This document shows positions 18,217 to 60,498 of a stretch of DNA of 64,000 nt, one piece after another. Location of the stretch: assembly GCF_002975205.1 (NCBI RefSeq), contig NZ_PCOC01000001.1, forward strand, positions 186,001-250,000, written 5' to 3'. A model generated the notes under the pieces. The model worked only from the letters and a program-made list of their open reading frames with translations. It had not been told where the DNA came from and did no database searches. This stretch comes from Ochrobactrum vermis. GTDB lineage: Bacteria; Pseudomonadota; Alphaproteobacteria; Rhizobiales; Rhizobiaceae. A program made the translations under genes and the position numbers. How positions within the stretch are numbered: position 1 is the stretch's first letter; each line of letters starts with the position of its first letter.

Positions 18217-18233
18217 GTCTATGTAAATCCTAT

Positions 18234-18284
18234 AAAAATTGTGGGATATATTTCCGGTCTTATGGGAAATTAAAATCCCGCAAT
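18234..18284. promoter_or_regulatory. Long imperfect palindrome upstream of cysG (candidate cys operator)
   Basis: ATTGTGGGAT (18238-18247) faces ATCCCGCAAT (18275-18284); inside, TTTCC (18251-18255) faces GGAAA (18265-18269) nine bases on. AAAAATTGT precedes it. A similar string (AAAAATTGT, GAT, TTTCCG, GGAAAT) lies before cysD at 31866-31901. It could also act as a terminator of the hemW-rsmI-yraN unit, but the shared motif favours a regulatory site. Confidence 0.6.
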
Positions 18285-18389
18285 CGGCTGTTTTGAGAAA
18301 AAGTGATGCTCGCCATCATTTTCGCGCGCAAGCACGTTTCTTATAAATCTCCCGCTCTCCATAGATAATGGCGCCAACTTTCACAAGAC

Positions 18390-18433
18390 GCATTCCCGCA
18401 CGCGAAACCGGTATCCACTTTCGCTGGAAATGC
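18390..18433. repeat. Family B palindromic repeat upstream of cysG
   Basis: GCATTCCCGCACGCGAAACC on the left faces TTTCGCTGGAAATGC on the right, with the family core CCGGTATCCACTTTCG. It ends 16 nt before the cysG start codon, so it lies in the leader or between promoter and gene. Confidence 0.75.
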
Positions 18434-18449
18434 TCCCAAGGATCGCGCC

Positions 18450-19877
18450 GTGTCTCTACCGCAAAAGCGTTTACTGGCTGATTTTCCTGCCTTCTTCCGG
18501 GTGTCGGAAGAGGTGGTTGTCGTCGTTGGCGGCGGCGAGGAAGCTTTGAACAAGGCGCGCCTCGTGGCGCAGACATCCGCACGTCTTCGCATCGTTGCCG
18601 AAGAAACAGAGCATCATCTGGCCGATTTTATTGCAAGCCATGGTGCGGAGCATGTGGCTGCACCTTTTGCGCCGAAACATGTCGCTGGCGCAAAGCTTGT
18701 TTTCGTGGCGACCGGCGATGAAGCGCAGGACCGCGCCGTTGCCGCTGTGGTCAAGGCCGAGAGGGTTCCGGTCAATGTCGTGGACCGTCCTGCCCTTTGC
18801 GATTTCCTGACGCCTGCCATCGTCAACCGCGCGCCGCTAACGATTGCCATCGGCTCGGAAGGAAGCGCTCCGGTTCTGGCGCAGATGGTTCGTGCACGTA
18901 TCGATGCCGCCTTTTCGCCGCGCCTTGGCGAGCTTGCGCATTTCGCCGAAAGCTGGCGTCCACTGGTCGAGCGTGCGTTGCCCAAGGGTCTGGCGCGTCG
19001 CAGTTTCTGGCGCGGTTTCTTTTCGGGCCGTGTTGCCAGCGCCATTGAAAATGGCGACCGAGTGGAAGCCTATAAGGCTGCGAGCGACCTGATCGAGCAG
19101 CGCGACAATGCCGCCGGTTATGTCTGGGTGGTCGGCGCCGGTCCGGGTGCCGAAGACCTACTGACGCTTCGCGCGCACCGCGCTTTGATGGAAGCCGATG
19201 TCATCGTGCATGATGCGCTGGTGCCGGAAGGCGTCATCGCCATGGGCCGTCGTGACGCCGAGCGCCTTGCCGTCGGCAAGCGCAAGGGCTGCCATTCCAA
19301 AAGCCAGGACGAGATCAACCGTCTGCTGGTTTCGCTGGGTCGGGAAGGCAAGCGCGTTGTGCGGCTGAAATCCGGCGATCCTCTGGTTTTCGGGCGCGCA
19401 GGCGAGGAAATGGCGGCACTGCGTGCCGCCGGTATCGGTTTCGAAATCGTGCCCGGCATCACCTCGGCCTTTGCTGCCGCTGCCGATATGGAATTGCCGC
19501 TGACCCTGCGCGGCGTTGCCTCGTCGCTGGTGTTCACCACCGGTCATGACATGACGGGCGACGTGCTGCCGGGCTGGGCGAAGCTCGCCGTCTCGGGTGC
19601 AACGATTGCCGTCTATATGGGCTCCACGGTCGCGGCATCGGTTGCTGCGCGGCTGATTGGTGCGGGCCTGCACGAAGATACCGCCGTTGCGGTGGTGGAA
19701 AATGCGAGCCGGCAGGACAAGCGCCTGTTCCACGGCACGCTGAAGGATTTGCCGGATTTGGAAAGCCGCAAGGAGCTTTCGGGCCCGGTCATGGTGATCA
19801 TTGGCGATGCAGTCGCCGGTGCCGCTATCGACAAAGCCGAAGCGCTGGCTCTCAAGCCGGTTTCCGTAGCAGCGTGA
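18450..19877 (+). CDS. cysG: Siroheme synthase CysG (bifunctional)
   Basis: Makes siroheme for sulfite reductase. The N-terminal half (about 1-215) is the precorrin-2 dehydrogenase/ferrochelatase domain with the NAD loop VVVVVGGGEEALNKARL. The C-terminal half (from about 222) is the uroporphyrinogen-III C-methyltransferase with VVGAGPGAEDLLTLRA, VGKRKG and RLKSGDPLVFGRAGEE. At 475 residues it has full length. The start is GTG with AAGGA about 8 nt upstream. It is the first gene of the sulfite-reduction operon. Confidence 0.95.
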   Translation: MSLPQKRLLADFPAFFRVSEEVVVVVGGGEEALNKARLVAQTSARLRIVAEETEHHLADFIASHGAEHVAAPFAPKHVAGAKLVFVATGDEAQDRAVAAVVKAERVPVNVVDRPALCDFLTPAIVNRAPLTIAIGSEGSAPVLAQMVRARIDAAFSPRLGELAHFAESWRPLVERALPKGLARRSFWRGFFSGRVASAIENGDRVEAYKAASDLIEQRDNAAGYVWVVGAGPGAEDLLTLRAHRALMEADVIVHDALVPEGVIAMGRRDAERLAVGKRKGCHSKSQDEINRLLVSLGREGKRVVRLKSGDPLVFGRAGEEMAALRAAGIGFEIVPGITSAFAAAADMELPLTLRGVASSLVFTTGHDMTGDVLPGWAKLAVSGATIAVYMGSTVAASVAARLIGAGLHEDTAVAVVENASRQDKRLFHGTLKDLPDLESRKELSGPVMVIIGDAVAGAAIDKAEALALKPVSVAA

Positions 19878-19894
19878 TTTTGAGGAGTTTGGAA

Positions 19895-20212
19895 ATGGTC
19901 GTAAAAGTTCTCACAGCAAACCGGCTGATCGACGGGCAGGCTGTGTGGCTCGGTGCTGACGGTTCGTGGCAGGAGACCATCGACGGCGCGCTGGTTGCTC
20001 GCCATGCCGAAGCTGTCACAGCGCTGGAAGACGCGGGCAAGGTTGCAGCGAAAGCCAATCTGGTTGTCGATGTGAATGTGATCGATGTCGAGGAGCGCGA
20101 GGAGGGGCTTTACCCAATCCGCCTGCGCGAGCGCATCCGCCTTTCCGGCCCGACCATCGTGACCTTTGGTGATCTGACTCTCGACAAGCCTGCTTTGAAG
20201 CGTGCCTCCTGA
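19895..20212 (+). CDS. DUF2849 family protein in the cys operon
   Basis: 105-residue protein resembling DUF2849, found almost only between cysG and cysI in alphaproteobacteria. No catalytic motif is visible; Trp and Glu residues are scattered and there are no cysteines, so it is unlikely to bind an iron-sulfur cluster. A role in sulfite reductase maturation or electron supply is inferred from context only. GAGGAG precedes the ATG at 19895. Confidence 0.85.
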   Translation: MVVKVLTANRLIDGQAVWLGADGSWQETIDGALVARHAEAVTALEDAGKVAAKANLVVDVNVIDVEEREEGLYPIRLRERIRLSGPTIVTFGDLTLDKPALKRAS

Positions 20213-20227
20213 AACCGGACCTAGACT

Positions 20228-21898
20228 ATGTATCGTTATGATGAATTCGACCGTGATTTTGTTGCGGCCCGCGTTGCCCAGTTCAAGGATCAGGTCGAGC
20301 GCCGCCTGACAGGAGAGCTGACCGAGGACCAGTTCAAGCCGCTGCGTCTGATGAACGGCCTCTATCTGCAATTGCACGCCTATATGCTGCGCGTGGCCAT
20401 CCCCTATGGCACGCTGTCGAGCCGCCAGCTGCGCAGGCTTGGGTCGATTGCGCGCGACTATGATCGGGGCTTTGGCCATTTCACCACGCGACAAAACATC
20501 CAGTATAACTGGCCTTCGCTGAAGGACGTGCCGCGCATTCTGGAAGAACTGGCGGAAGTCGAGATGCATGCCATCCAGACCTCCGGCAATTGCATACGCA
20601 ACGTGACCGCCGATCATTTCGCAGGCGCTGCCGCCGACGAAGTGGCCGATCCGCGTCCCTTCGCCGAAATTCTGCGCCAGTGGTCGTCGCTGCATCCGGA
20701 ATTTTCCTATCTGCCGCGCAAGTTCAAGATCGCCATTGTCGGCTCGGACCATGACCGCGCCGCCATTCAGGTGCATGACATCGGCTTGCACCTGAAGAAG
20801 AACGAGGCGGGCGATCTGGGACTGGCCGTCTATATTGGCGGCGGTCAGGGTCGCACGCCGATGATTGCCAAGAAAATCCGTGACTTCCTGCCCATCGAGG
20901 ACATGCTGACCTATGTTACGGCCATCGTGCGCGTCTATAATCTGCATGGTCGTCGCGACAACAAATATAAGGCGCGTATCAAGATTCTCGTCCATGAAAC
21001 GGGCGTCGAAGAACTGACCCGCGAGATCGATGCTGAATGGGAAGATATTCGTTATGGCGAGCTGAAGCTGCCGCAGCGCGATATCAGCGCCATCGAAAGC
21101 TATTTCCGCATGCCGAACCTGCCGCAACGGCCGGAAGGCTGGGAAGTGCTGGCTGTTACCCAGAAGGCCGATGCGGAATTTGCAAGCTGGGTGGCGCGCA
21201 ATGTCACGCCGCATAAGAACCCGGATTATGCCGTGGTCACCATTTCGCTGAAGCCCATCGGCGGCATTCCCGGTGACGCAAGCGCCGAGCAGATGGAACT
21301 GGTGGCGGATATTGCCGAAACCTATTCCTTTGATGAAATCCGCGTCAGCCACGAGCAGAATCTGGTTCTGCCGCACGTGGCGAAGGCCGATCTCGCAGCG
21401 GTCTATGATCTGCTGCAATCGGACGGTCTGGTGACGCCGAATGCCGGTCTCATCACCGACATTATCGCTTGCCCCGGTCTCGACTATTGCGCCCTTGCCA
21501 ATGCGCGCTCCATTCCGGTGGCGCAGCGTATTTCCGAACGCTTCGGCGACCAGCAGCGCCAGCTTGAAATCGGCGATCTCAAGATCAAGATTTCCGGCTG
21601 CATCAATGCCTGCGGCCATCACCATGTCGGCCATATCGGCATTCTGGGCGTCGAGAAGAAGGGTGAGGAACTCTATCAGATCACGCTTGGCGGTTCGGCG
21701 GATGAGCATTCGACCATTGGTGACATCACCGGTCGCGGCTTCTCGTCGGAAGAAGTGGTGGATGCCATCGAAACGGTCGTGGACACCTATCTGTCCTTGC
21801 GTGAAAGCCCGGAGGAAAACTTCCTCGCCGCCTATCGCCGCGTCGGCATGGAGCCGTTCAAACGCGCGCTTTATGGAGAAATAAGCCGTGCAGCTTGA
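20228..21898 (+). CDS. cysI: Sulfite reductase hemoprotein (ferredoxin/NirA-like type)
   Basis: Six-electron reduction of sulfite to sulfide at a siroheme-[4Fe-4S] centre. The 556-residue product has the two nitrite/sulfite reductase repeats; cluster ligands are Cys415 and Cys421 (CPGLDYC) and Cys458 and Cys462 (CINAC). RHSRQ-type basic residues (FTTRQNIQYNW) bind siroheme carboxylates. No cysJ flavoprotein is adjacent, so electrons probably come from ferredoxin or another donor. It overlaps cysH by 11 bp. Confidence 0.95.
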   Translation: MYRYDEFDRDFVAARVAQFKDQVERRLTGELTEDQFKPLRLMNGLYLQLHAYMLRVAIPYGTLSSRQLRRLGSIARDYDRGFGHFTTRQNIQYNWPSLKDVPRILEELAEVEMHAIQTSGNCIRNVTADHFAGAAADEVADPRPFAEILRQWSSLHPEFSYLPRKFKIAIVGSDHDRAAIQVHDIGLHLKKNEAGDLGLAVYIGGGQGRTPMIAKKIRDFLPIEDMLTYVTAIVRVYNLHGRRDNKYKARIKILVHETGVEELTREIDAEWEDIRYGELKLPQRDISAIESYFRMPNLPQRPEGWEVLAVTQKADAEFASWVARNVTPHKNPDYAVVTISLKPIGGIPGDASAEQMELVADIAETYSFDEIRVSHEQNLVLPHVAKADLAAVYDLLQSDGLVTPNAGLITDIIACPGLDYCALANARSIPVAQRISERFGDQQRQLEIGDLKIKISGCINACGHHHVGHIGILGVEKKGEELYQITLGGSADEHSTIGDITGRGFSSEEVVDAIETVVDTYLSLRESPEENFLAAYRRVGMEPFKRALYGEISRAA

Positions 21899-22637
21899 TG
21901 CTGAACAAAGTGCCAGCGCCGAAGCCCGCCTTCTGGAGGTCAGCCACGGTGCGTCTACCCCGCAGGAAGTGATCGCGCTCGTCACGCGCGAACTCTTTGA
22001 CGGGCAGATCGCGGTCGTGTCTTCCTTCGGGGCGGAATCGGCTGTGCTTTTGCATATGATCTCGGAAATTGACCCGGCCACCCCGGTGCTGTTTCTCGAT
22101 ACGGGCAAGCATTTCCGGGCCACGCTCGATTATCGTCACGATCTGGTGGACCGGCTGGGGCTGACCGATGTGCAGGATATCCTGCCGCTGGAGGATAGTC
22201 TTAAAAGCGATGATCCGTTCGGTGCCCTGTCGATGACCGACAAGGACCGCTGTTGCTTCATCCGCAAGGTTGAGCCGATGGCGCGCGCCGTCGCGCCCTA
22301 TCGCGCCTGGATGACGGGCCGCAAGCAGTTTCAGGCATCGACGCGCGAAAGCCTGCCGGTGTTTGAATCGGTCGGCCCACGCATTCGCATCAATCCGCTG
22401 GCGCGTTTGCAGGCAGCAGACCTCAAAGCCTATGCCGAAAAGCATGATCTGCCGCCGCATCCTCTGACCGCGCAGGGCTATCGTTCCATCGGCTGCATGC
22501 CCTGCTCGCGGCCCGTGAGCGATGGCGAAGACCAGCGTGCCGGACGCTGGGCGGGATCGGAAAAGACAGAATGCGGCATCCATCTGACTGGCCTTGCCGA
22601 CAGCCTTAAAACATTGGGAGCCACCGAGCGGAAATGA
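21888..22637 (+). CDS. cysH: Adenylyl-sulfate (APS) reductase
   Basis: Reduces activated sulfate to sulfite with thioredoxin or glutathione. The 249-residue product has the PP-loop VSSFGAESAV, the catalytic ECGIHL tail (Cys229) and the four extra cysteines Cys122-Cys123 and Cys203-x2-Cys206 that bind a [4Fe-4S] cluster. Those cysteines mark the APS-using rather than the PAPS-using type. It starts with GTG inside the end of cysI and overlaps the next gene by 4 nt. Confidence 0.95.
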   Translation: MQLDAEQSASAEARLLEVSHGASTPQEVIALVTRELFDGQIAVVSSFGAESAVLLHMISEIDPATPVLFLDTGKHFRATLDYRHDLVDRLGLTDVQDILPLEDSLKSDDPFGALSMTDKDRCCFIRKVEPMARAVAPYRAWMTGRKQFQASTRESLPVFESVGPRIRINPLARLQAADLKAYAEKHDLPPHPLTAQGYRSIGCMPCSRPVSDGEDQRAGRWAGSEKTECGIHLTGLADSLKTLGATERK

Positions 22638-23158
22638 GCGATATCAACGAAACCAAACTCTGGTCCGCCGATGGCTTTCGTGAAGACGATTATGTCTTTG
22701 CCGACGATCTTGAAGCGGCGGGCGACGCCCCGGCGATCGTCATTCCGCTCGCCGTCTGGCTCGGGCTGGGTGAAGAGCGCCGCCGCGCCTCCAATCGCCG
22801 CATCGGCGTTTCGGTTGCACCGGGCGAAGCCATTGAACCGCTGCTGAATGATCTGGGCAGCGTGCCGCTGATCGCCTTGCAGTTCCCGGCTTTCAATGAT
22901 GGTCGTTCCTATTCCAAGGCCGAGATTTTGCGCCGCGAAGGTTTTGCCGGTGAGTTGCGAGCCGTTGGCGACGTGCTGATCGATCAGGCCGCGCTGATGC
23001 TGCGCACCGGCTTTGACAGCCTTCAGGTGACCAACAAGGTTGCACAAGGCCGTCTCGGCGAAAATCGTCTGGTCGATACGCCCGGCTATTACCAGCCCGG
23101 TCGCGGTTCCGTGCAGGAAGAGGGCGGGTTTGCCTGGCGTCGTGTCCAGACCAGTTAG
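22634..23158 (+). CDS. DUF934 family protein, probable sulfite-reduction accessory
   Basis: 174-residue protein of the DUF934 family, which occurs next to cysI/cysH in proteobacteria and is often labelled oxidoreductase probably involved in sulfite reduction. The middle part has PAIVIPLAVWL and PLIALQFPAFNDGRSYSKAE, the conserved core. No cofactor motif is seen. It overlaps cysH by 4 nt and ends the operon. Confidence 0.88.
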   Translation: MSDINETKLWSADGFREDDYVFADDLEAAGDAPAIVIPLAVWLGLGEERRRASNRRIGVSVAPGEAIEPLLNDLGSVPLIALQFPAFNDGRSYSKAEILRREGFAGELRAVGDVLIDQAALMLRTGFDSLQVTNKVAQGRLGENRLVDTPGYYQPGRGSVQEEGGFAWRRVQTS

Positions 23159-23236
23159 GCACATCACTCAAATTTGCCATTTTTCTGCGCGCCTTGATGC
23201 GCTAGACACGCCTCATTAGTTTCAAGGAGTCGAGGC

Positions 23237-23530
23237 GTGATCCGGCATATTGTTTTCTTCAGCGTCAAGGAAGGTCAGGATATAGAGGCCGTGAGGAAAG
23301 GGCTGGAGCAACTTGGCACCATCCCGCATTCCGAAGTCTTCGAAGTTCTGCCAAATTCCAAGGTCGATCCGATGTGTGAACGCATCGATCTCGTTGTCTA
23401 TGCAGAGTTCAAGGATGAGGAGGCGCTTTTTGCTTTCAAAAGGCATCCGACCTATGACGCCACGACGCAGCTTGTGCGTCCGATGCGTGAATTGCGCTTT
23501 TCCGCAGACGTTGTGACAGACAAGCGCTGA
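23237..23530 (+). CDS. Dabb family protein (stress-responsive A/B barrel)
   Basis: 97-residue single dimeric alpha/beta-barrel domain beginning IRHIVFFSVKEGQD, with the family pattern of a buried His-Ile-Val strand and a C-terminal YDATTQLVRPM stretch. Small enzymes and stress proteins of this fold have varied roles; none can be assigned. GTG start behind AAGGAG. It converges with ogt, no gap. Confidence 0.8.
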   Translation: MIRHIVFFSVKEGQDIEAVRKGLEQLGTIPHSEVFEVLPNSKVDPMCERIDLVVYAEFKDEEALFAFKRHPTYDATTQLVRPMRELRFSADVVTDKR

Positions 23531-24109
23531 TTACCAGTCAGCCAGCGGCTTTTCCTGCAGCGGTAGACCACCAAACAGATCGGGCTCGCTAGAGATTTTG
23601 GCGCGCTCGATATTGAGAAGCTTCAGTTTCGTCGCCGTGCCCCCTGCCGCCGAAAAACCGCCAACCTTGCCATTGGCGCCCAGTACCCGATGGCATGGCA
23701 CAATGATTGGAAACGGGTTTTTGCCCAGTGCATAGCCGACAGCCTGTGAGAGGCTGATATCGCCGAGCCGCCGCGCAATCGCGCCATAAGTCGTCGTCTC
23801 GCCCGGTTTCAGTTCCAGGATGATTTCATAGACCTGACGGTTGAGATCGGGTTGGGTATCGAGCGCCAGCGGTGCGTCGGAAAAATCGACAGCGGCTCCG
23901 GTCAAAAGCGCGCGCACCCCTTGGATTGTATTGGTGACGAAAACCGGAAGATCGGTATCTTCTGCACCGGGGAACCGCTCATCGAGCCGATAACGGGTTT
24001 CTTTCTCGTCGGCGTCTCCGATCTCGACGCCAACGATCTTTTGGCCGCGCCAGGCAATGCCGCACGGTCCGATCTCTGTTTCGAAAATGGTGATACCTGA
24101 CGATTCCAT
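23531..24109 (-). CDS. ogt: Methylated-DNA-protein cysteine methyltransferase
   Basis: Suicide enzyme that moves alkyl groups from O6-alkylguanine to its own cysteine. The 192-residue product has the active-site PCHRV with Cys139, preceded by a winged-helix region (GETTTYGAIARRLG, LSQAVGYALGKNPFPIIV). The N-terminal part is the ribonuclease-H-like domain. Family members are named Ogt or AdaB; no AdaA partner is adjacent. Confidence 0.92.
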   Translation of the reverse strand: MESSGITIFETEIGPCGIAWRGQKIVGVEIGDADEKETRYRLDERFPGAEDTDLPVFVTNTIQGVRALLTGAAVDFSDAPLALDTQPDLNRQVYEIILELKPGETTTYGAIARRLGDISLSQAVGYALGKNPFPIIVPCHRVLGANGKVGGFSAAGGTATKLKLLNIERAKISSEPDLFGGLPLQEKPLADW

Positions 24110-24338
24110 GGAAGAGATACTAGCATGGTTTCGATCGCGGCAAGCCGGTTATCGGGCGACTATAGGAACGTTCAAGTGAAAAGTCGTAATAATTGCGGAA
24201 ATTGCCGCAGTGAAATGGTTGAAGAACGACACGAATAATGATTGTGTGATGGCAACCGGCCAATGCCCTTAAATGGCCAAACGGATTGACGAGAGTTTCC
24301 GGCACCTGTCACGGCGGGAGCGGAACCGAGGAATTTAA

Positions 24339-24584
24339 ATGGACGATTACGAGCGATATGCCACAGGGTTGATGATCGTTTTTGGTGCGCTGATTATCGG
24401 CGGCCTCATGGCGGCTAACCTGTATCACGGCGACAAGCCGGGCTTTTTATTCGCGCTAGGCGCTGCAGTTGTCAGCTGGTTCGCGGCCTTTGCCGTCTTG
24501 TTTGACAAGCCGCGCGTTTACGGCGTGATGATTGCAGTTGCGATCGGCCTGGTTGCGGCTTCAATCGGTGCCTACGTCACCTGA
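24339..24584 (+). CDS. Small three-helix membrane protein
   Basis: 81-residue hydrophobic protein with three predicted membrane helices (about 9-27, 35-53, 58-79) joined by short polar loops. GAGGAA precedes the ATG. I do not recognise a family. It ends before a bidirectional terminator shared with the BA14K gene. The 229-bp gap upstream holds no other gene that I can see. Confidence 0.65.
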   Translation: MDDYERYATGLMIVFGALIIGGLMAANLYHGDKPGFLFALGAAVVSWFAAFAVLFDKPRVYGVMIAVAIGLVAASIGAYVT

Positions 24585-24605
24585 TTTCTAAACCACGTCA
24601 TTTAG

Positions 24606-24636
24606 AAAAAGCCCCGGACTATCCGGGGCTTTTTTG
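24606..24636. terminator. Bidirectional terminator
   Basis: AAAAAGCCCCGGA and TCCGGGGCTTTTTT form a GC-rich hairpin with A and T tracts on either side, able to stop both the small membrane protein gene and the opposing BA14K gene. Confidence 0.9.
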
Positions 24637-24638
24637 AT

Positions 24639-25049
24639 TCAGAGATAGGGCGAGTAGCACTGGCGCCGCGGCCCGTAATTGGGCTGGAACGTGTTATCAT
24701 AGGCTCGATAAGAGCGATAACGATTGTAGCACCAACGCACATGCGGGTTGCCGCCACGATAGACCGGAGCTGGACGGTAGCGATAAGCGGGAGGCGGCCC
24801 CCAATAACGACGATCATACCGATAGTAAGGGCGATAACGCGGACGGTCGTGTCGCCAGTGACGACGGTCTTCCCGCCAGTAGTCACGGTAGTCGTAATAT
24901 TGAACATTCTGCACATTCGGTGCGGAGGTCTGTGCGGACGGTGTCACCATCAGAGACGGCTGTGCCGCATTTGCAGTCCCGGCAACAGCAGACAATCCCA
25001 TGCCGAGTGACAAGCATGCGGCAAACAGGGAATAAGTAAACCTTTTCAT
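24639..25049 (-). CDS. BA14K family secreted protein
   Basis: 136-residue protein with a signal peptide ([20 protein letters not shown], cleavage near ANA-AQ), a Tyr/Arg/Pro-rich repetitive middle ([13 protein letters not shown]) and the BA14K ending [19 protein letters not shown] followed by RRQCYSPYL with a conserved cysteine pair. Brucella BA14K is an immunoreactive protein reported to have lectin-like properties. AGGAGAGG lies before the ATG at 25049. A family B repeat sits 16 bp upstream. Confidence 0.85.
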
Positions 25050-25064
25050 AGGCCTCTCCTCACA

Positions 25065-25109
25065 GCGCATACCGAAAAGTGTGAAACGGCTTTCGGATAA
25101 GATGCGCGT
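25065..25109. repeat. Family B palindromic repeat
   Basis: Core CCGAAAAGTGTGAAACGG, then CTTTCGG and GATGCGCG, flanked by GCGCAT on the left. CCGAAA/TTTCGG and GCGCAT/ATGCGC give nested stems. It lies in the 5' region of the BA14K gene. Closely matching copies are at 39300-39345 and (inverted) 43448-43491. Confidence 0.85.
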
Positions 25110-25251
25110 AAAAATAAACAACACATACTGTCCTTGGTCCTATTTTGCCTGGACAATGTGGCGCAGCGGTGGCCCTGCGAAGTCACGATTTCTTCGAGCT
25201 GGCAACAGATGGGTGATGCTCGATTATAGGCCGGAGAACGGCTTCTCCGAA

Positions 25252-25280
25252 TTGACATAAAGATATGTTTATGTCATTAA
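25252..25280 (+). promoter_or_regulatory. Putative metH promoter with overlapping palindromic operator
   Basis: A 22-bp inverted repeat at 25254-25275 has arms GACATAAA and TTTATGTC around GATATG. Its left end overlaps a consensus-like -35 TTGACA (25252-25257), with CATTAA 17 bp on as a weak -10. A repressor bound here would block polymerase. ArsR-type regulators such as SahR control methionine genes in proteobacteria; which protein binds here is not known. Confidence 0.6.
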
Positions 25281-25375
25281 GCGACTTTCGCAATGTGCGT
25301 ATGGCAGGCAATTTAGATTGGTATGTCCCGAACAGACCTGTTGCCTGGTAACAGATTGAATACAGGCGGTGTTTG

Positions 25376-29167
<3,792 letters not shown>

Positions 29168-29608
29168 TGAATGTCGCAGCTCAATTAACTTAACCTCATA
29201 TATTCGTATTTCTGACAGATGCGCCAAGCGCGTTCGGCTGGTTTGTAGTTGCTTATCGACTGCAGATCAGCAGACGAGGCGGCGTCAGCCCGGTATTCCG
29301 TGTTTTGGGGTGCAGATTTAGTTGTCGTTCAGAGCGCGTTTCATCTGATTGAACGAGATCCGCGCGTCTCAACGGTCTATTTTAACGCGCATCTTGTTCC
29401 GAAAGGTTGCGCTGTGTAGATATTAAGTATTTATTAAAGTAAAGCATAATTTATATAACTGTAATATTTAATTGGTGGTGATTTATATATTTCACAATAC
29501 TATATATAGAAAAATACAGGGATGCGTTAGTGATTTGTTGGCGTTTTATTTAAATTCGTCGAATTTCAATAATCATCAATAGTTATATTTTTCATTGAGA
29601 AGTCTGCA
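29168..29608. other. 441-bp AT-rich gap with an A+B repeat
   Basis: A repeat block occupies about 29331-29418: AGAGCGCGTTTCATCTGATT (family A), then ACGCGCATCTTGTTCCGAAA (half of family B). From about 29420 to 29600 the sequence is much richer in A and T than its surroundings. No gene is seen; the promoter of the former LuxR gene would lie here. Confidence 0.6.
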
Positions 29609-30316
29609 ATGAAATGGGAACAAATCTATGAATCCATGCAATCTGCTGACGATGCCGGACAGCTCCTTGAATACATAAATACCTATGCCAAACAGTGTGG
29701 TTTTGCACACACGGCCTATGTCATACGCGTGCCTTTGTTAAACGGTGTCGTCAAATAGCCTAGCTTTGGATCGTTGCCGCGGGAATGGATCGATCACTAT
29801 GCGGCCATAAAATATGCGGATCTGGCCCCACTGGTTCGCAAGGCATTGAACAGCATCGAGCCGCTGGTCTGGTCATCAAAGCTGTTTGCAGATGCGCCGC
29901 AGATCTGGGCGGACGCACAGCGCTTCGGTCTGAAGGTTGGAATTTCCCAGCCGTGCTGGGCGGCACAGGGCGTGTTCGGAATGCTGTCGTTCCTGAGAAA
30001 TGGCCAGGCATTATCTTCCGGCGAAGTTTCAATGTTGTGACGTCAGATGCAGATCGCAGCCAACCTTTTGCATCTTTCGATGTATGAACATCTCGATGTT
30101 CCGACGATGAATTGCGTTTCGGAAGTGAACCTGACGATGCGTGAACGGGAAATCCTGCGCTGGACAAGCGAGGGAAAGACTGCCGAGATAATCGGCACGA
30201 TCCTCAACATTTCGACACGCACGGTGAATTTCCACATCAGTAATGTGCTTACAAAGCTGGTTGCGGTCAATAAAGTTCAGGCGGTCGCCAAAGCCCGCAC
30301 CTTCGGTCTTCTCTAA
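29609..30316 (+). pseudogene. LuxR-family autoinducer-binding regulator with two in-frame stops
   Basis: One frame of 236 codons encodes a LuxR-type regulator interrupted by TAG at 29756-29758 (codon 50) and TGA at 30038-30040. No frameshift is present. The ligand-binding half keeps EWIDHYAAIKYADL and PLVWSS, matching the conserved Trp, Tyr, Asp and second Trp of AHL receptors. The C-terminal half keeps a full HTH (LTMREREILRWTSEGKTAEI, STRTVNFHISNVLTKL). An ATG at 30047 could still start an 89-residue HTH-only protein. It is most likely a recent pseudogene. Confidence 0.85.
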
Positions 30317-30431
30317 ATCTCTTCCAAGTCCCTCGGCGGTTTGATCCGAAGGGCAATTTTCAGCGGCTTTCCGGTTTGCGCTTTTTCGGAAACGGGCTAC
30401 AAATTCATTATCTTTCCCGGAGGATCAATGA

Positions 30432-31802
30432 ATGACTGCTCAGCCAAACTCTCTTGAAGCCCGCGATATCCGTTATCATCTCCATTCTTACACTGACGCT
30501 GTCCGCCTCGAAGCGGAAGGCCCGCTTGTCATCGAGCGTGGCGATGGCATTTACGTCGAAGATGTCACGGGCAAGCGCTACATCGAAGCGATGTCAGGAC
30601 TTTGGAGTGTCGGCGTGGGCTTTTCGGAACCGCGTCTGGCTGAAGCAGCCGCAAGGCAAATGAAGAAGCTGCCTTTTTATCATACATTCTCCTATCGTTC
30701 ACACGGCCCCGTCATAGATCTGGCTGAAAAGCTTGTTTCGATGGCTCCTGTTCCGATGAGCAAGGCTTACTTCACCAATTCAGGTTCCGAGGCTAACGAT
30801 ACGGTTATCAAGCTGATCTGGTATCGCTCCAATGCGTTGGGCGAACCGGAGCGCAAAAAAATCATCTCGCGCAAGCGTGGTTATCACGGCGTGACGATTG
30901 CCTCTGCGAGCCTGACTGGCCTGCCCAACAATCACCGCTCCTTCGATCTGCCGATCAACCGTATTCTGCATACGGGCTGTCCACATCACTATCGTGAAGG
31001 GCAGGTGGGCGAGAGCGAGGAACAGTTCGCAACGCGACTCGCGGATGAGCTGGAACAGTTGATTCTTGCTGAAGGTCCCCACACTATCGCCGCCTTTATC
31101 GGCGAGCCTGTGATGGGTGCTGGCGGCGTGGTCGTGCCGCCGAAAACCTATTGGGAGAAGGTTCAGGCGGTTCTCAAGCGCTACGATATTCTCCTGATCG
31201 CCGATGAAGTCATTTGTGGCTTCGGGCGGACGGGCAATCTGTTCGGCAGCCAGACATTCGACATGAAACCTGACATTCTGGTCATGTCGAAGCAGCTTTC
31301 GTCATCCTATCTGCCGATTTCGGCCTTCCTCATCAATGAGCGTGTGTACGCTCCGATTGCCGAAGAAAGCCACAAGATCGGCACGCTTGGCACGGGCTTC
31401 ACGGCATCGGGCCATCCGGTGGCGGCGGCTGTGGCGTTGGAAAATCTCGCTATCATTGAAGAGCGTGATCTGGTCTCCAATGCGCGCGACCGCGGTGCCT
31501 ATATGCAGAAGCGCCTGCGCGAGTTGCAGGGTCATCCTCTGGTCGGCGAAGTGCGTGGCGTCGGTCTCATTGCCGGTGTCGAGCTTGTCACCGACAAACA
31601 GGCCAAGACAGGCCTTGAGCAGGCTGGTGCGCTGGGTGCACAGGCAAATGCAGCTCTTCAGGAGCGAGGCGTCATTTCGCGCGCAATGGGCGACACACTT
31701 GCCTTCTGCCCGCCGCTAATCATCAATGATCAGCAGATCGATACGATGGTGTCAGCGCTTGAAGCGACGCTGAATGATGTTCAGGCGAGCCTCGCCAGGT
31801 AA
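30432..31802 (+). CDS. Class-III omega-transaminase (amine/omega-amino acid:pyruvate type)
   Basis: PLP-dependent aminotransferase that moves amino groups from amines or omega-amino acids to pyruvate. The 456-residue product has the class-III core: NSGSEAND, YHGVTIAS, IADEVICGFGRTG and the PLP lysine Lys287 in VMSKQLSSS. From memory it is nearly identical to the (S)-selective transaminase described from O. anthropi, but I could not run a comparison. GGAGG precedes the ATG at 30432. Its natural substrate is unknown. Confidence 0.92.
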   Translation: MTAQPNSLEARDIRYHLHSYTDAVRLEAEGPLVIERGDGIYVEDVTGKRYIEAMSGLWSVGVGFSEPRLAEAAARQMKKLPFYHTFSYRSHGPVIDLAEKLVSMAPVPMSKAYFTNSGSEANDTVIKLIWYRSNALGEPERKKIISRKRGYHGVTIASASLTGLPNNHRSFDLPINRILHTGCPHHYREGQVGESEEQFATRLADELEQLILAEGPHTIAAFIGEPVMGAGGVVVPPKTYWEKVQAVLKRYDILLIADEVICGFGRTGNLFGSQTFDMKPDILVMSKQLSSSYLPISAFLINERVYAPIAEESHKIGTLGTGFTASGHPVAAAVALENLAIIEERDLVSNARDRGAYMQKRLRELQGHPLVGEVRGVGLIAGVELVTDKQAKTGLEQAGALGAQANAALQERGVISRAMGDTLAFCPPLIINDQQIDTMVSALEATLNDVQASLAR

Positions 31803-31808
31803 TAATTT

Positions 31809-31845
31809 GCTCTGGAGCTGTTTGAATGACGGGCAGCTCCAGAGC
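31809..31845 (+). terminator. Stem-loop after the transaminase gene
   Basis: GCTCTGGAGCTG (31809-31820) pairs perfectly with CAGCTCCAGAGC (31834-31845) around a 13-nt loop. There is no T-tract, so it may terminate weakly or protect the mRNA 3' end. Confidence 0.6.
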
Positions 31846-31865
31846 GCAAATTCGCTAAATATCAC

Positions 31866-31901
31866 AAAAATTGTATGATTTTCCGTCACTTGGTCGGAAA
31901 T
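31866..31901 (+). promoter_or_regulatory. Candidate cys operator upstream of cysD
   Basis: AAAAATTGT (31866-31874), GAT, then TTTCC (31880-31884) and GGAAA (31896-31900) 11 bp apart. The order and words match the palindrome upstream of cysG at 18234-18284. It lies about 225 bp before cysD; the rest of the 322-bp gap holds no gene that I can see. Confidence 0.6.
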
Positions 31902-32124
31902 CGGCCTTTTCGAGCGTGCGCAAGTTTGTTCCGGTCCAGCTTGCAAATACGGTAAGTTTTTCGCGCAAGCCAGTTGCAATACGCGATAGGTTTCTTTCAC
32001 TTTTCCGCATCATTTCACGACAATGCGCGCATCGTGGCCTTTGCCGCACCTGCGCCGGATGAAGGCTTGCGCCACCCCTCCAGCCAGTATCGAGTCCCCA
32101 TCCGGTTACCGGGAGTAAGTAGTC

Positions 32125-33045
32125 GTGCATCATGCATCCCTGACCAAGAACCTGACGCATCTGCAGCGCCTAGAGGCGGAAGCGATCCATATTTTTCGTG
32201 AGGTTGCAGCAACCTTCTCCAATCCGGTGATGCTTTACTCGGTCGGGAAAGATTCTTCGGTGATGCTGCATCTGGCGATGAAGGCATTCTATCCGGCTCC
32301 GCCACCCTTTCCCTTTCTGCATGTCGATACGACATGGAAGTTTCGCGAGATGATCGAGTTTCGTGATGCCCAGACACGTGAAAAGGGTTTCGAACTGCTC
32401 GTGCATATCAACGAGGATGGCGTGCGCGAGGGTATTGGTCCATTTAGTCATGGATCGAATATCCACACCCATGTGATGAAGACGGTCGCTTTGCGGCAGG
32501 CGCTCGACAAATACAAGTTCGATGCCGCTTTTGGCGGCGCTCGTCGCGACGAGGAGAAATCGCGCGCCAAGGAGCGCATCTTTTCTTTCCGTAACGCGCA
32601 GCATGGCTGGGACCCCAAGAACCAGCGTCCGGAAATGTGGAAGATCTATAATACGCGAGTTTCCGCCGGGGAGTCGATCCGCGTCTTTCCGCTGTCGAAC
32701 TGGACCGAACTCGATATCTGGCAATATATCCTGCAGGAGAACATCCCCATCGTGCCGCTTTATTTTGCGGCGCATCGTCCGGTGGTCGAACGCGATGGCA
32801 TGCTGATCATGGTCGACGATGACCGTATGAAGTTGCGTCAGGGCGAACAGGTAGAAAACCGACTGGTGCGATTCCGCACGCTTGGCTGCTATCCACTCAC
32901 TGGCGCAATTGAATCCAGCGCGGCCGACCTCTCGGGCATCGTCGAAGAAATGCTGATTGCTCGTACATCCGAGCGGCAGGGCCGCGCCATCGATCGTGAT
33001 GAAGCCGGATCGATGGAGAAAAAGAAGCGCGAGGGCTATTTCTGA
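32125..33045 (+). CDS. cysD: Sulfate adenylyltransferase subunit CysD
   Basis: Small catalytic subunit of ATP sulfurylase; with CysN it makes APS from sulfate and ATP. The 306-residue product has the PP-loop [45 protein letters not shown] and the C-terminal EKKKREGYF. It starts with GTG behind GGGAG. It overlaps cysNC by one base. Confidence 0.96.
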
Positions 33046-60002: not shown

Positions 60003-60099
60003 CGTGTCGTCTCTCATTCCGAACGGAAAAATGAGACGCCATGAACCTTTATGGAGCGTAAGCTCCTGTGGGGATGAACCCCGTCCGCGACGCATCAAA

Positions 60100-60187
60100 C
60101 TCCGTTCCCTACGCAGGTATTACCCGGATCAGGTTCAATGGGTTAACGCGAGAACGCGCCTCTCAGCCTCTTGCGAGGCACCCCAAC
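60100..60187 (-). promoter_or_regulatory. TPP riboswitch (THI element)
   Basis: Minus-strand reading: GGGGTGCCTCGCAAGAGGCT, then GAGA, a variable stem (GGCGCGTTCTCGCGTT), ACCCATTGAACCTGATCCGG and GTAATACCTGCGTAGGGA. These are the conserved blocks of the thi-box aptamer. Downstream stems GGGG/CCCC and GGAGC/GCTCC lie before the thiD start; with no T-tract, control of translation seems more likely than termination. Confidence 0.96.
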
Positions 60188-60498
60188 GAATTTTGCATCC
60201 ATAGGCATAGGCCGGAAGTTTTGAACGGTCAAGCAGTGTTCTGTTGTGTCTGGTACTGCGTCTGACGCGATGAAAACGCGATAATCAGAAAAAACTTATA
60301 TGAAAGGGCTTTTCATATATGGTTTGTTAAAACCATTAGTCGTAATCTCTCTGCGGGGAAGTGTGCCTGGGTGGCAGTCCTCGCCTGTCGGCTCGTGAAC
60401 TTGTCTGTTCATGAACACATGCGGAATATGATGTTCCAGTGAAAGGTTTTGTTGGCTGAATTAGCGGACGACACGTGTCGGTGCGGAGCAAGGGGTAC
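60188..60498. other. Divergent promoter region of the thi operon and the GGDEF-EAL gene
   Basis: 311 bp without a gene. It must carry the thi promoter (left) and that of the diguanylate cyclase gene (right). I see no repeat and no clear operator. Confidence 0.4.

What the first reader, a model, noticed from the sequence alone, without database searches (positions are those of the whole stretch)
18234..31901. Shared motif upstream of both sulfur-assimilation operons
The cysG and cysD operons lie about 13 kb apart. Each has AAAAATTGT, a GAT word, then TTTCC...GGAAA inverted half-sites (18234-18284 and 31866-31901). The inner spacing is 9 and 11 bp. At cysG the site sits in a larger 47-nt palindrome. 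This suggests one regulator for both operons, possibly a LysR-type CysB analogue; I know of no described motif that matches.
Basis: partly seen in the sequence, partly recalled or inferred. Interest (0 to 1): 0.7.

Follow-up and report, generated by a model that had tools for sequence, protein, structure and literature searches.

The report
Shared switch site before sulfur genes
Two sulfur-assimilation operons of a Brucella/Ochrobactrum-type bacterium carry the same 23-letter mirror-image DNA word, probably the docking site of one control protein that has not been identified here.

Summary
But it is not the TTTCC...GGAAA pair: that pair survives in only 5 of 31 cysG and 5 of 33 cysD upstreams of genus genomes that keep the element. 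It scores above 20 bits at cysG in 32 of 35 and at cysD in 33 of 35 genus genomes, and at both operons of another genus, G050. A matrix trained only on cys sites also finds it at a flavoprotein/nitroreductase divergent promoter in 28 of 32 genomes and upstream of a TauE/SafE-family gene in 10 of 35, at nearly constant distances. One transcription factor for these loci is likely. Its identity is unknown: E. coli CysB gave no match at E<=1e-25 in 35 genus genomes (no positive control), and the T-N11-A word of LysR sites is absent from both window dyads. Separately, a TTYCTTC element of cysG recurs in 26 of 28 upstreams of other genera. New member of a known kind.

The parts
18226..18248 (.). 23-bp dyad AATCCTATAAAAATTGTGGGATA, predicted operator upstream of the cysG operon
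   Evidence: 33.6 bits; >20 bits in 32 of 35 genus genomes; present in another genus, G050 (21.9 bits)
31858..31880 (.). 23-bp dyad AATATCACAAAAATTGTATGATT, predicted operator upstream of the cysD operon
   Evidence: 29.3 bits; >20 bits in 33 of 35; G050 cysD 23.3 bits
   Evidence: Conserved in the 26 distinct rows of A2; kept in L086 and L088, which have lost the dyad (G077, G069)
18297..18309 (+). GAAAAAGTGATGC, upstream half of a promoter-proximal region of cysG
   Evidence: By eye in genus and family upstreams; not tested statistically
18330..18343 (+). AAGCACGTTTCTTA, promoter-proximal TTYCTTC-type element
   Evidence: Motif search in 28 cysG upstreams of other genera: score >=10 in 26 of 28; 32 of 35 genus genomes pass. 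The window copy scores 10.2, and at least 14 other places in the 64 kb score as much, so the evidence is conservation, not rarity
18364..18369 (+). GATAAT, inferred -10 of the cysG promoter
   Evidence: Sequence and conservation only; no start site known; consensus scan found no sigma-70-type match
18450..19877 (+). cysG, siroheme synthase
   Evidence: NF007922 550 bits
19874..20212 (+). DUF2849 gene
   Evidence: PF11011
20228..21898 (+). nitrite/sulfite reductase family gene (cysI/sir-like by place in the operon)
   Evidence: PF01077 and PF03460, two stretches each; no listed NCBIfam model above its cut-off
21888..22637 (+). cysH, phosphoadenylyl/adenylyl-sulfate reductase
   Evidence: NF002537 266 bits
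22634..23158 (+). DUF934 gene
   Evidence: PF06073
31991..31996 (+). TTTCTT upstream of the inferred cysD promoter
   Evidence: Similar in genus; below threshold of the cysG-derived element (4.4)
32019..32024 (+). GACAAT, inferred -10 of the cysD promoter
   Evidence: Conserved in genus; inference, no match in consensus scan
32125..33045 (+). cysD, sulfate adenylyltransferase subunit
   Evidence: NF009214 534 bits
33045..34979 (+). cysNC, bifunctional sulfate adenylyltransferase subunit 1/APS kinase
   Evidence: NF004035 1045 bits
34983..35828 (+). inositol monophosphatase-family gene (cysQ-like by position)
   Evidence: PF00459; name inferred

Best explanation
A 23-bp dyad (about AATCCTAYAAAWTTRTAGGATT) upstream of the cysG-DUF2849-sulfite reductase-cysH-DUF934 and cysD-cysNC-cysQ-like operons is the operator of one dimeric transcription factor that controls both sulfate-assimilation operons together. 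In this genus the same factor probably also controls a divergent flavoprotein/nitroreductase pair and, in a subclade, a TauE/SafE-family gene. Shown: the dyad, its conservation, its recurrence at the four loci. Inferred: that a protein binds it, that it is one protein, that it answers to sulfur or thiol state, and the sign of regulation. The dyad centre lies about 127 bp (cysG) and 150 bp (cysD) upstream of the inferred -10 boxes, so it acts from a distance or on an unseen distal promoter. At cysG a separate TTYCTTC element, seen across the family, sits near the inferred -35 and is probably the older promoter control.
For: Matrix trained on cysG and cysD sites only: >20 bits at cysG in 32 of 35 and cysD in 33 of 35 genomes. 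Not used in training: flavoprotein/nitroreductase promoter >=15 bits in 28 of 32 genomes, 26 of these 28 at -88 to -99 from the flavoprotein start (G080 at -81, G076 at -128); TauE-family gene >=15 bits in 10 of 35, all ten at -354 or -355 (two positions printed for G068 were counted from the wrong end and are set right). Background: best score outside the two window sites is 11.2 bits in 148,364 bases; in 995,058 bases of 80 loci the only score >=15 away from the flavoprotein promoter is 16.6, in a cyanobacterial locus. Both cys operons of genus G050 carry it (21.9 and 23.3 bits). In the window's own genome the five best-scoring pattern hits are cysG 33.6, cysD 29.3, TauE-family 25.0, a site before a proS-like gene 20.9 and the flavoprotein site 19.8. 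Pattern with <=1 mismatch: 109 strand-rows in 35 genus genomes against 14 for the reversed pattern, though the pattern came from these sites.
Against: No regulator is known; none was recognised beside a site among open frames read by eye from their first residues, without a family search. The site is absent at both cys operons of G069 and G092 and at cysG of G077. Of 28 cysG and 28 cysD upstreams of other genera, one each scores >=15 (L042 18.4; L119 of G050 23.3), so it is lineage-specific. Of 23 places outside cysG and cysD, 10 are at the flavoprotein or TauE-family loci, 8 lie elsewhere and 5 were not fetched. The flavoprotein/nitroreductase pair has no clear link to sulfur and TauE is linked by family name only. 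Paired positions of the dyad do not covary within cysG: 73.8% of cells pair, against 53.1% at best when slid, but no pair changes on both sides. Genus sequences are related, so counts are not independent.
Confidence: 0.75

Rival explanations
1. The regulator is a LysR-type protein (a functional CysB analogue) and the dyad is its recognition site.
For: Some sites have an inner 4-N7-4 dyad such as CTAC-N7-GTAG, the geometry quoted for BenM (ATAC-N7-GTAT) in PMC11329422 (passages). T-N11-A in some register occurs in 31 of 62 distinct sites. The TTA-N7/8-TAA box quoted as classic for LysR proteins (PMC7486931, passages) occurs once in each upstream region, at 18260 and 32106, outside the dyads; its chance rate and conservation were not tested.
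Against: Central T-N11-A in only 13 of 62 distinct sites; neither window dyad has T-N11-A in any register. No match to E. coli CysB at E<=1e-25 in 35 genus genomes (no positive control). The dyad lies 127-150 bp above the inferred -10, farther than the 50-60 bp before the start site given for CysB activation sites.
Confidence: 0.3
2. The reader's TTTCC...GGAAA inverted half-sites with 9-11 bp spacing are the regulator site.
For: Only two such matches in the window, both here.
Against: The pair is kept in 5 of 31 and 5 of 33 upstreams that keep the dyad; not seen by eye beside the G050 dyads.
Confidence: 0.04
3. The 47-nt palindrome at cysG acts as an RNA hairpin (leader or terminator) rather than a DNA site.
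For: -19.8 kcal/mol, z -2.45, 3 of 200 shuffles as good. Of 455 cells 78.2% pair and the covariation score is above all 500 shuffles; 4 pairs change on both sides, which 166 of 500 shuffles also reach.
Against: cysD has none (z 0.08); no terminator-like site; 3 of 5 relatives folded have other structures; two relatives keep only one arm. The shuffles ignore relatedness.
Confidence: 0.05
4. LsrB/VtlR, the LysR regulator of Rhizobiales, controls these operons directly through this site.
For: In Agrobacterium, cysI, cysN, cysD-2 and cysH are among the genes affected after H2O2 in lsrB, oxyR and double mutants (PMC11975290, passages).
Against: Published boxes GCAT-N3-TG-N3-T and TGCA-N6-GCAT (PMC7486931, PMC10746234, passages) are absent from both window upstream regions, and the dyad is lineage-specific although LsrB is said to be encoded by members of the Rhizobiales (abstract start).
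Confidence: 0.06
5. An Rrf2-family regulator (like CymR of Firmicutes) binds the dyad.
For: [quoted passage not shown] aureus (PMC2869319, start of abstract; one passage); that it is of the Rrf2 family is recalled.
Against: The genome has two full-length Rrf2 genes: one looks RirA-like, one lies beside a thioredoxin-reductase-like gene (names by eye); neither is near a site. No CymR motif was seen in print here.
Confidence: 0.08

Closest known systems
CysB cysteine regulon of enterobacteria (PMC11329422, passages)
   Same: One transcription factor jointly controls sulfate-assimilation operons.
   Different: No match to E. coli CysB at E<=1e-25 in the genus; CysB sites are described as having very weak consensus and lying 50-60 bp before the start site, whereas this is a sharp 23-bp dyad farther upstream.
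LysR-type operator boxes (T-N11-A; BenM ATAC-N7-GTAT; VtlR GCAT-N3-TG-N3-T)
   Same: Dyad symmetry with an A+T-rich centre; some sites have 4-N7-4 symmetry.
   Different: Central T-N11-A in 13 of 62 distinct sites only; VtlR and LsrB boxes absent.
CymR regulon (Rrf2, Firmicutes)
   Same: A regulon of cysteine metabolism under one factor (palindromic operator recalled, not seen here).
   Different: No CymR-like gene recognised; two full-length Rrf2 genes only.

Membership tests
Transcription-factor operator shared by a regulon | Sequence conserved above its flanks at orthologous promoters | tested here: met
   1.71 and 1.49 bits per column against 0.68 and 0.49 in the 30 bp upstream, 1.03 and 1.18 in the 20 bp downstream
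Transcription-factor operator shared by a regulon | Recurs at further promoters not used to define it | tested here: met
   28 of 32 flavoprotein and 10 of 35 TauE-family upstreams
Transcription-factor operator shared by a regulon | Bound by a protein | not testable with these tools
   Needs binding experiments
LysR-type (LTTR) recognition site | T-N11-A core | tested here: not met
   Neither window dyad; central T-N11-A in 13 of 62, any register in 31 of 62 distinct sites
CysB regulon | CysB orthologue in the genome | tested here: inconclusive
   0 of 35 genus genomes at E<=1e-25 with E. coli CysB; that search had no positive-control genome
LsrB/VtlR site | GCAT-N3-TG-N3-T or TGCA-N6-GCAT | tested here: not met
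   No match in either upstream region, both strands
Rrf2/CymR site | Rrf2 regulator of cysteine metabolism | tested here: inconclusive
   Two full-length Rrf2 genes, neither linked to a site
RNA leader hairpin | Fold present in both operon leaders | tested here: not met
   cysG z -2.45, cysD z 0.08

The most novel reading that the evidence does not exclude
Brucella/Ochrobactrum-type bacteria have replaced CysB by an undescribed, lineage-specific regulator that reads a sharp 23-bp dyad and couples sulfate assimilation to a flavoprotein/nitroreductase redox pair and a sulfite-exporter-family gene.
Probability: 0.45. Interest if true: 0.5.

Novelty: new member of a known kind. Interest (0 to 1): 0.4.

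Why it matters
Sulfate assimilation is controlled by CysB in enterobacteria, but no such protein was found in this group and no regulator was seen named for it in the searches made. A sharp operator at cysG, cysD and two further loci gives a concrete handle for finding that regulator and predicts a joint sulfur/redox regulon.

Tried and rejected
Rejected: TTTCC...GGAAA as the site; one RNA hairpin shared by both operons; LsrB/VtlR boxes. CysB was looked for and not found. Led nowhere: looking for a regulator gene beside cysG, cysD or the flavoprotein gene; using distant flavoprotein relatives to find the site with a neighbouring regulator. Of the 80 loci, 23 are of the Brucella/Ochrobactrum/Falsochrobactrum group by name, identity or matching contig, and 20 of these have a score >=15 at the flavoprotein promoter; none of the other 57 does. 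One search kept the best 80 of 109 relatives.

Of the 23 places outside cysG and cysD with <=1 mismatch, 10 are flavoprotein or TauE-family sites, 8 others were read and set aside, and 5 were not fetched. Among the 8, a match shared by G064 and G083, one shared by G065 and G071, and single ones in G066, G081 and G084 were not pursued; one in G082 is told under Noticed in passing. In the own-genome scan, hits inside coding frames (L351 17.0, L357 16.7) and the others at 16.8 bits or less were set aside as chance; one of these, L354, lies beside a DeoR-like gene (name by eye) but scores 3.7.

Rows dropped: L087 (G062, reading broken) was replaced by L261; G082 has only a contig end at cysG and was left out (31 rows instead of 32); the alignments used 30 of 35 genomes per operon; A2 holds 26 distinct rows; the flavoprotein set has 32 of 35 genomes (two without a match at E<=1e-60, one with a broken gene). 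The 28 cysG and 28 cysD upstreams of other genera are the best-matching ones that searches returned as loci, out of 61 genomes searched. The matrix was trained on 35 distinct cys sites, so cysG and cysD scores in the genus are not independent; G050 was not in training. The shuffled control is one shuffle per width.
Full report
What was checked. These are the only two TTTCC-N6..14-GGAAA matches in the window, against a mean of 0.6 in 40 first-order Markov sequences. The operons are cysG-DUF2849-sulfite reductase-cysH-DUF934 and cysD-cysNC-inositol-phosphatase family.

Where the window lies. The window is part of G000, a 5.4-Mb genome in three contigs. The window's own record is not named.

Footprinting. 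Upstream regions of cysG and cysD were collected from 35 genomes of the genus and, as the best-matching loci, from 61 family genomes. Within the genus the TTTCC/GGAAA pair is not conserved: 5 of 31 cysG and 5 of 33 cysD upstreams that keep the dyad. TTTCC alone is kept at cysD (28 of 33) but not at cysG (5 of 31). The conserved block is a 23-bp dyad at 18226-18248 and 31858-31880. Some relatives have it as a nearly perfect palindrome, such as AATACTATAAAATTTGTAGTATT (G061 cysD). Its columns carry 1.71 (cysG) and 1.49 (cysD) bits on average, against 0.68 and 0.49 in the 30 bp upstream and 1.03 and 1.18 in the 20 bp downstream.

Recurrence elsewhere. A symmetric matrix was trained on 35 distinct cysG and cysD sites only. 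It gives >20 bits at cysG in 32 of 35 genomes (misses G069, G077, G092) and at cysD in 33 of 35 (misses G069, G092). Pattern scans of the window's genome and of the genus pointed to further places. In one search there were 23 outside cysG and cysD; 18 were fetched and read, and 10 of these recur at two orthologous loci. First, the divergent promoter of an FAD-NAD(P)-binding protein (PF13454) and a nitroreductase (PF00881): 28 of 32 genomes score >=15 bits, 26 of these at -88 to -99 from the flavoprotein start. Second, a TauE/SafE-family gene (PF01925) next to an Alph_Pro_TM gene: 10 of 35 genomes, all at -354 or -355. Neither locus was in the training set. In 148,364 background bases the best score was 11.2. 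In 80 loci (995,058 bases) fetched by flavoprotein homology, the only score >=15 away from the flavoprotein promoter was 16.6. Since these places were first found with a pattern drawn from the cys sites, the independent part is their conservation and near-constant position across genomes.

Beyond the genus. Of 28 cysG and 28 cysD upstreams of other genera one each reaches 15 bits: G051 cysG 18.4, and the same G050 cysD. The site is therefore lineage-specific.

A second, older element. A motif search in 28 cysG upstreams of other genera found ..TCTGTTYCTTCAAT (log-likelihood 212 against 64 for one shuffled set at width 20). At width 14 the score is >=10 in 26 of 28, 23 of these at -59 to -68. 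The window keeps it as AAGCACGTTTCTTA at 18330-18343, score 10.2, which at least 14 other places of the window also reach. 32 of 35 genus genomes pass at cysG but 5 of 35 at cysD, and the window's cysD scores 4.4. So this element belongs to cysG and is not shown to be shared. It lies about 21 bp before an inferred -10 (GATAAT, 18364-18369).

RNA alternative. The 47-nt palindrome at cysG folds well (z -2.45) and 78.2% of cells pair across 26 rows, above all 500 shuffles, though pairs changed on both sides are no more than shuffles often give (166 of 500). cysD has no such fold (z 0.08), no terminator-like site was found, 3 of 5 relatives fold otherwise, and two relatives keep only its right arm.

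The regulator. E. coli CysB gave no match at E<=1e-25 in 35 genus genomes; the tool notes that without a positive control an empty answer shows nothing. A central T-N11-A is in 13 of 62 distinct sites (any register: 31 of 62) and in neither window dyad. A TTA-N7/8-TAA box, quoted as classic for LysR proteins, is present once in each upstream region outside the dyads (18260, 32106); its conservation was not tested. Published VtlR and LsrB boxes are absent (boxes from passages). Two full-length Rrf2 genes exist. No regulator gene was recognised by eye next to a site. The class is open; I give LysR about 0.3.

Literature. The listings of searches showed no paper on such a motif for sulfur genes of this group; only open-access papers are held. 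Searches were for CysB, CymR and LsrB. Of five papers I saw passages only. CysB sites are described as weak in consensus and 50-60 bp before the start site (PMC11329422). In Agrobacterium the same kinds of cys gene are affected after H2O2 in lsrB and oxyR mutants (PMC11975290), which leaves a redox input possible.

Verdict. Ordinary in kind, useful in detail.

Noticed in passing
window 18264-18281: Second conserved cysG block RGGAATKAAAATCCYGC, kept in two relatives (L086, L088) that lost the dyad; role unknown.
   Followed up: partly
L184-L205, about 270-300 bp before the TauE-family start: Another palindrome, of the type TTGTTGTTC..AAACAACAA, is seen by eye upstream of the TauE-family gene in most of these loci (not in L201), including genomes without the 23-bp dyad.
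   Followed up: no
L355:1501-1523 (G000:C1:1083736) and L180:2337-2359: Dyad-like sites (20.9 and 27.6 bits) in the long intergenic region before a proS-like gene (name by eye) in two genomes; possible fifth target.
   Followed up: partly
window 60089-60195, - strand: TPP riboswitch, 81.4 bits.
   Followed up: no
G069 and G092: Both genomes (Falsochrobactrum ovis and F. tianjinense by matching places) lack the dyad at both cys operons, a natural contrast set for finding the regulator.
   Followed up: no
L252 (G075, second cysD copy): G075 has a second cysD copy (75% identity) whose upstream lacks the dyad (best 5.3 bits).
   Followed up: no
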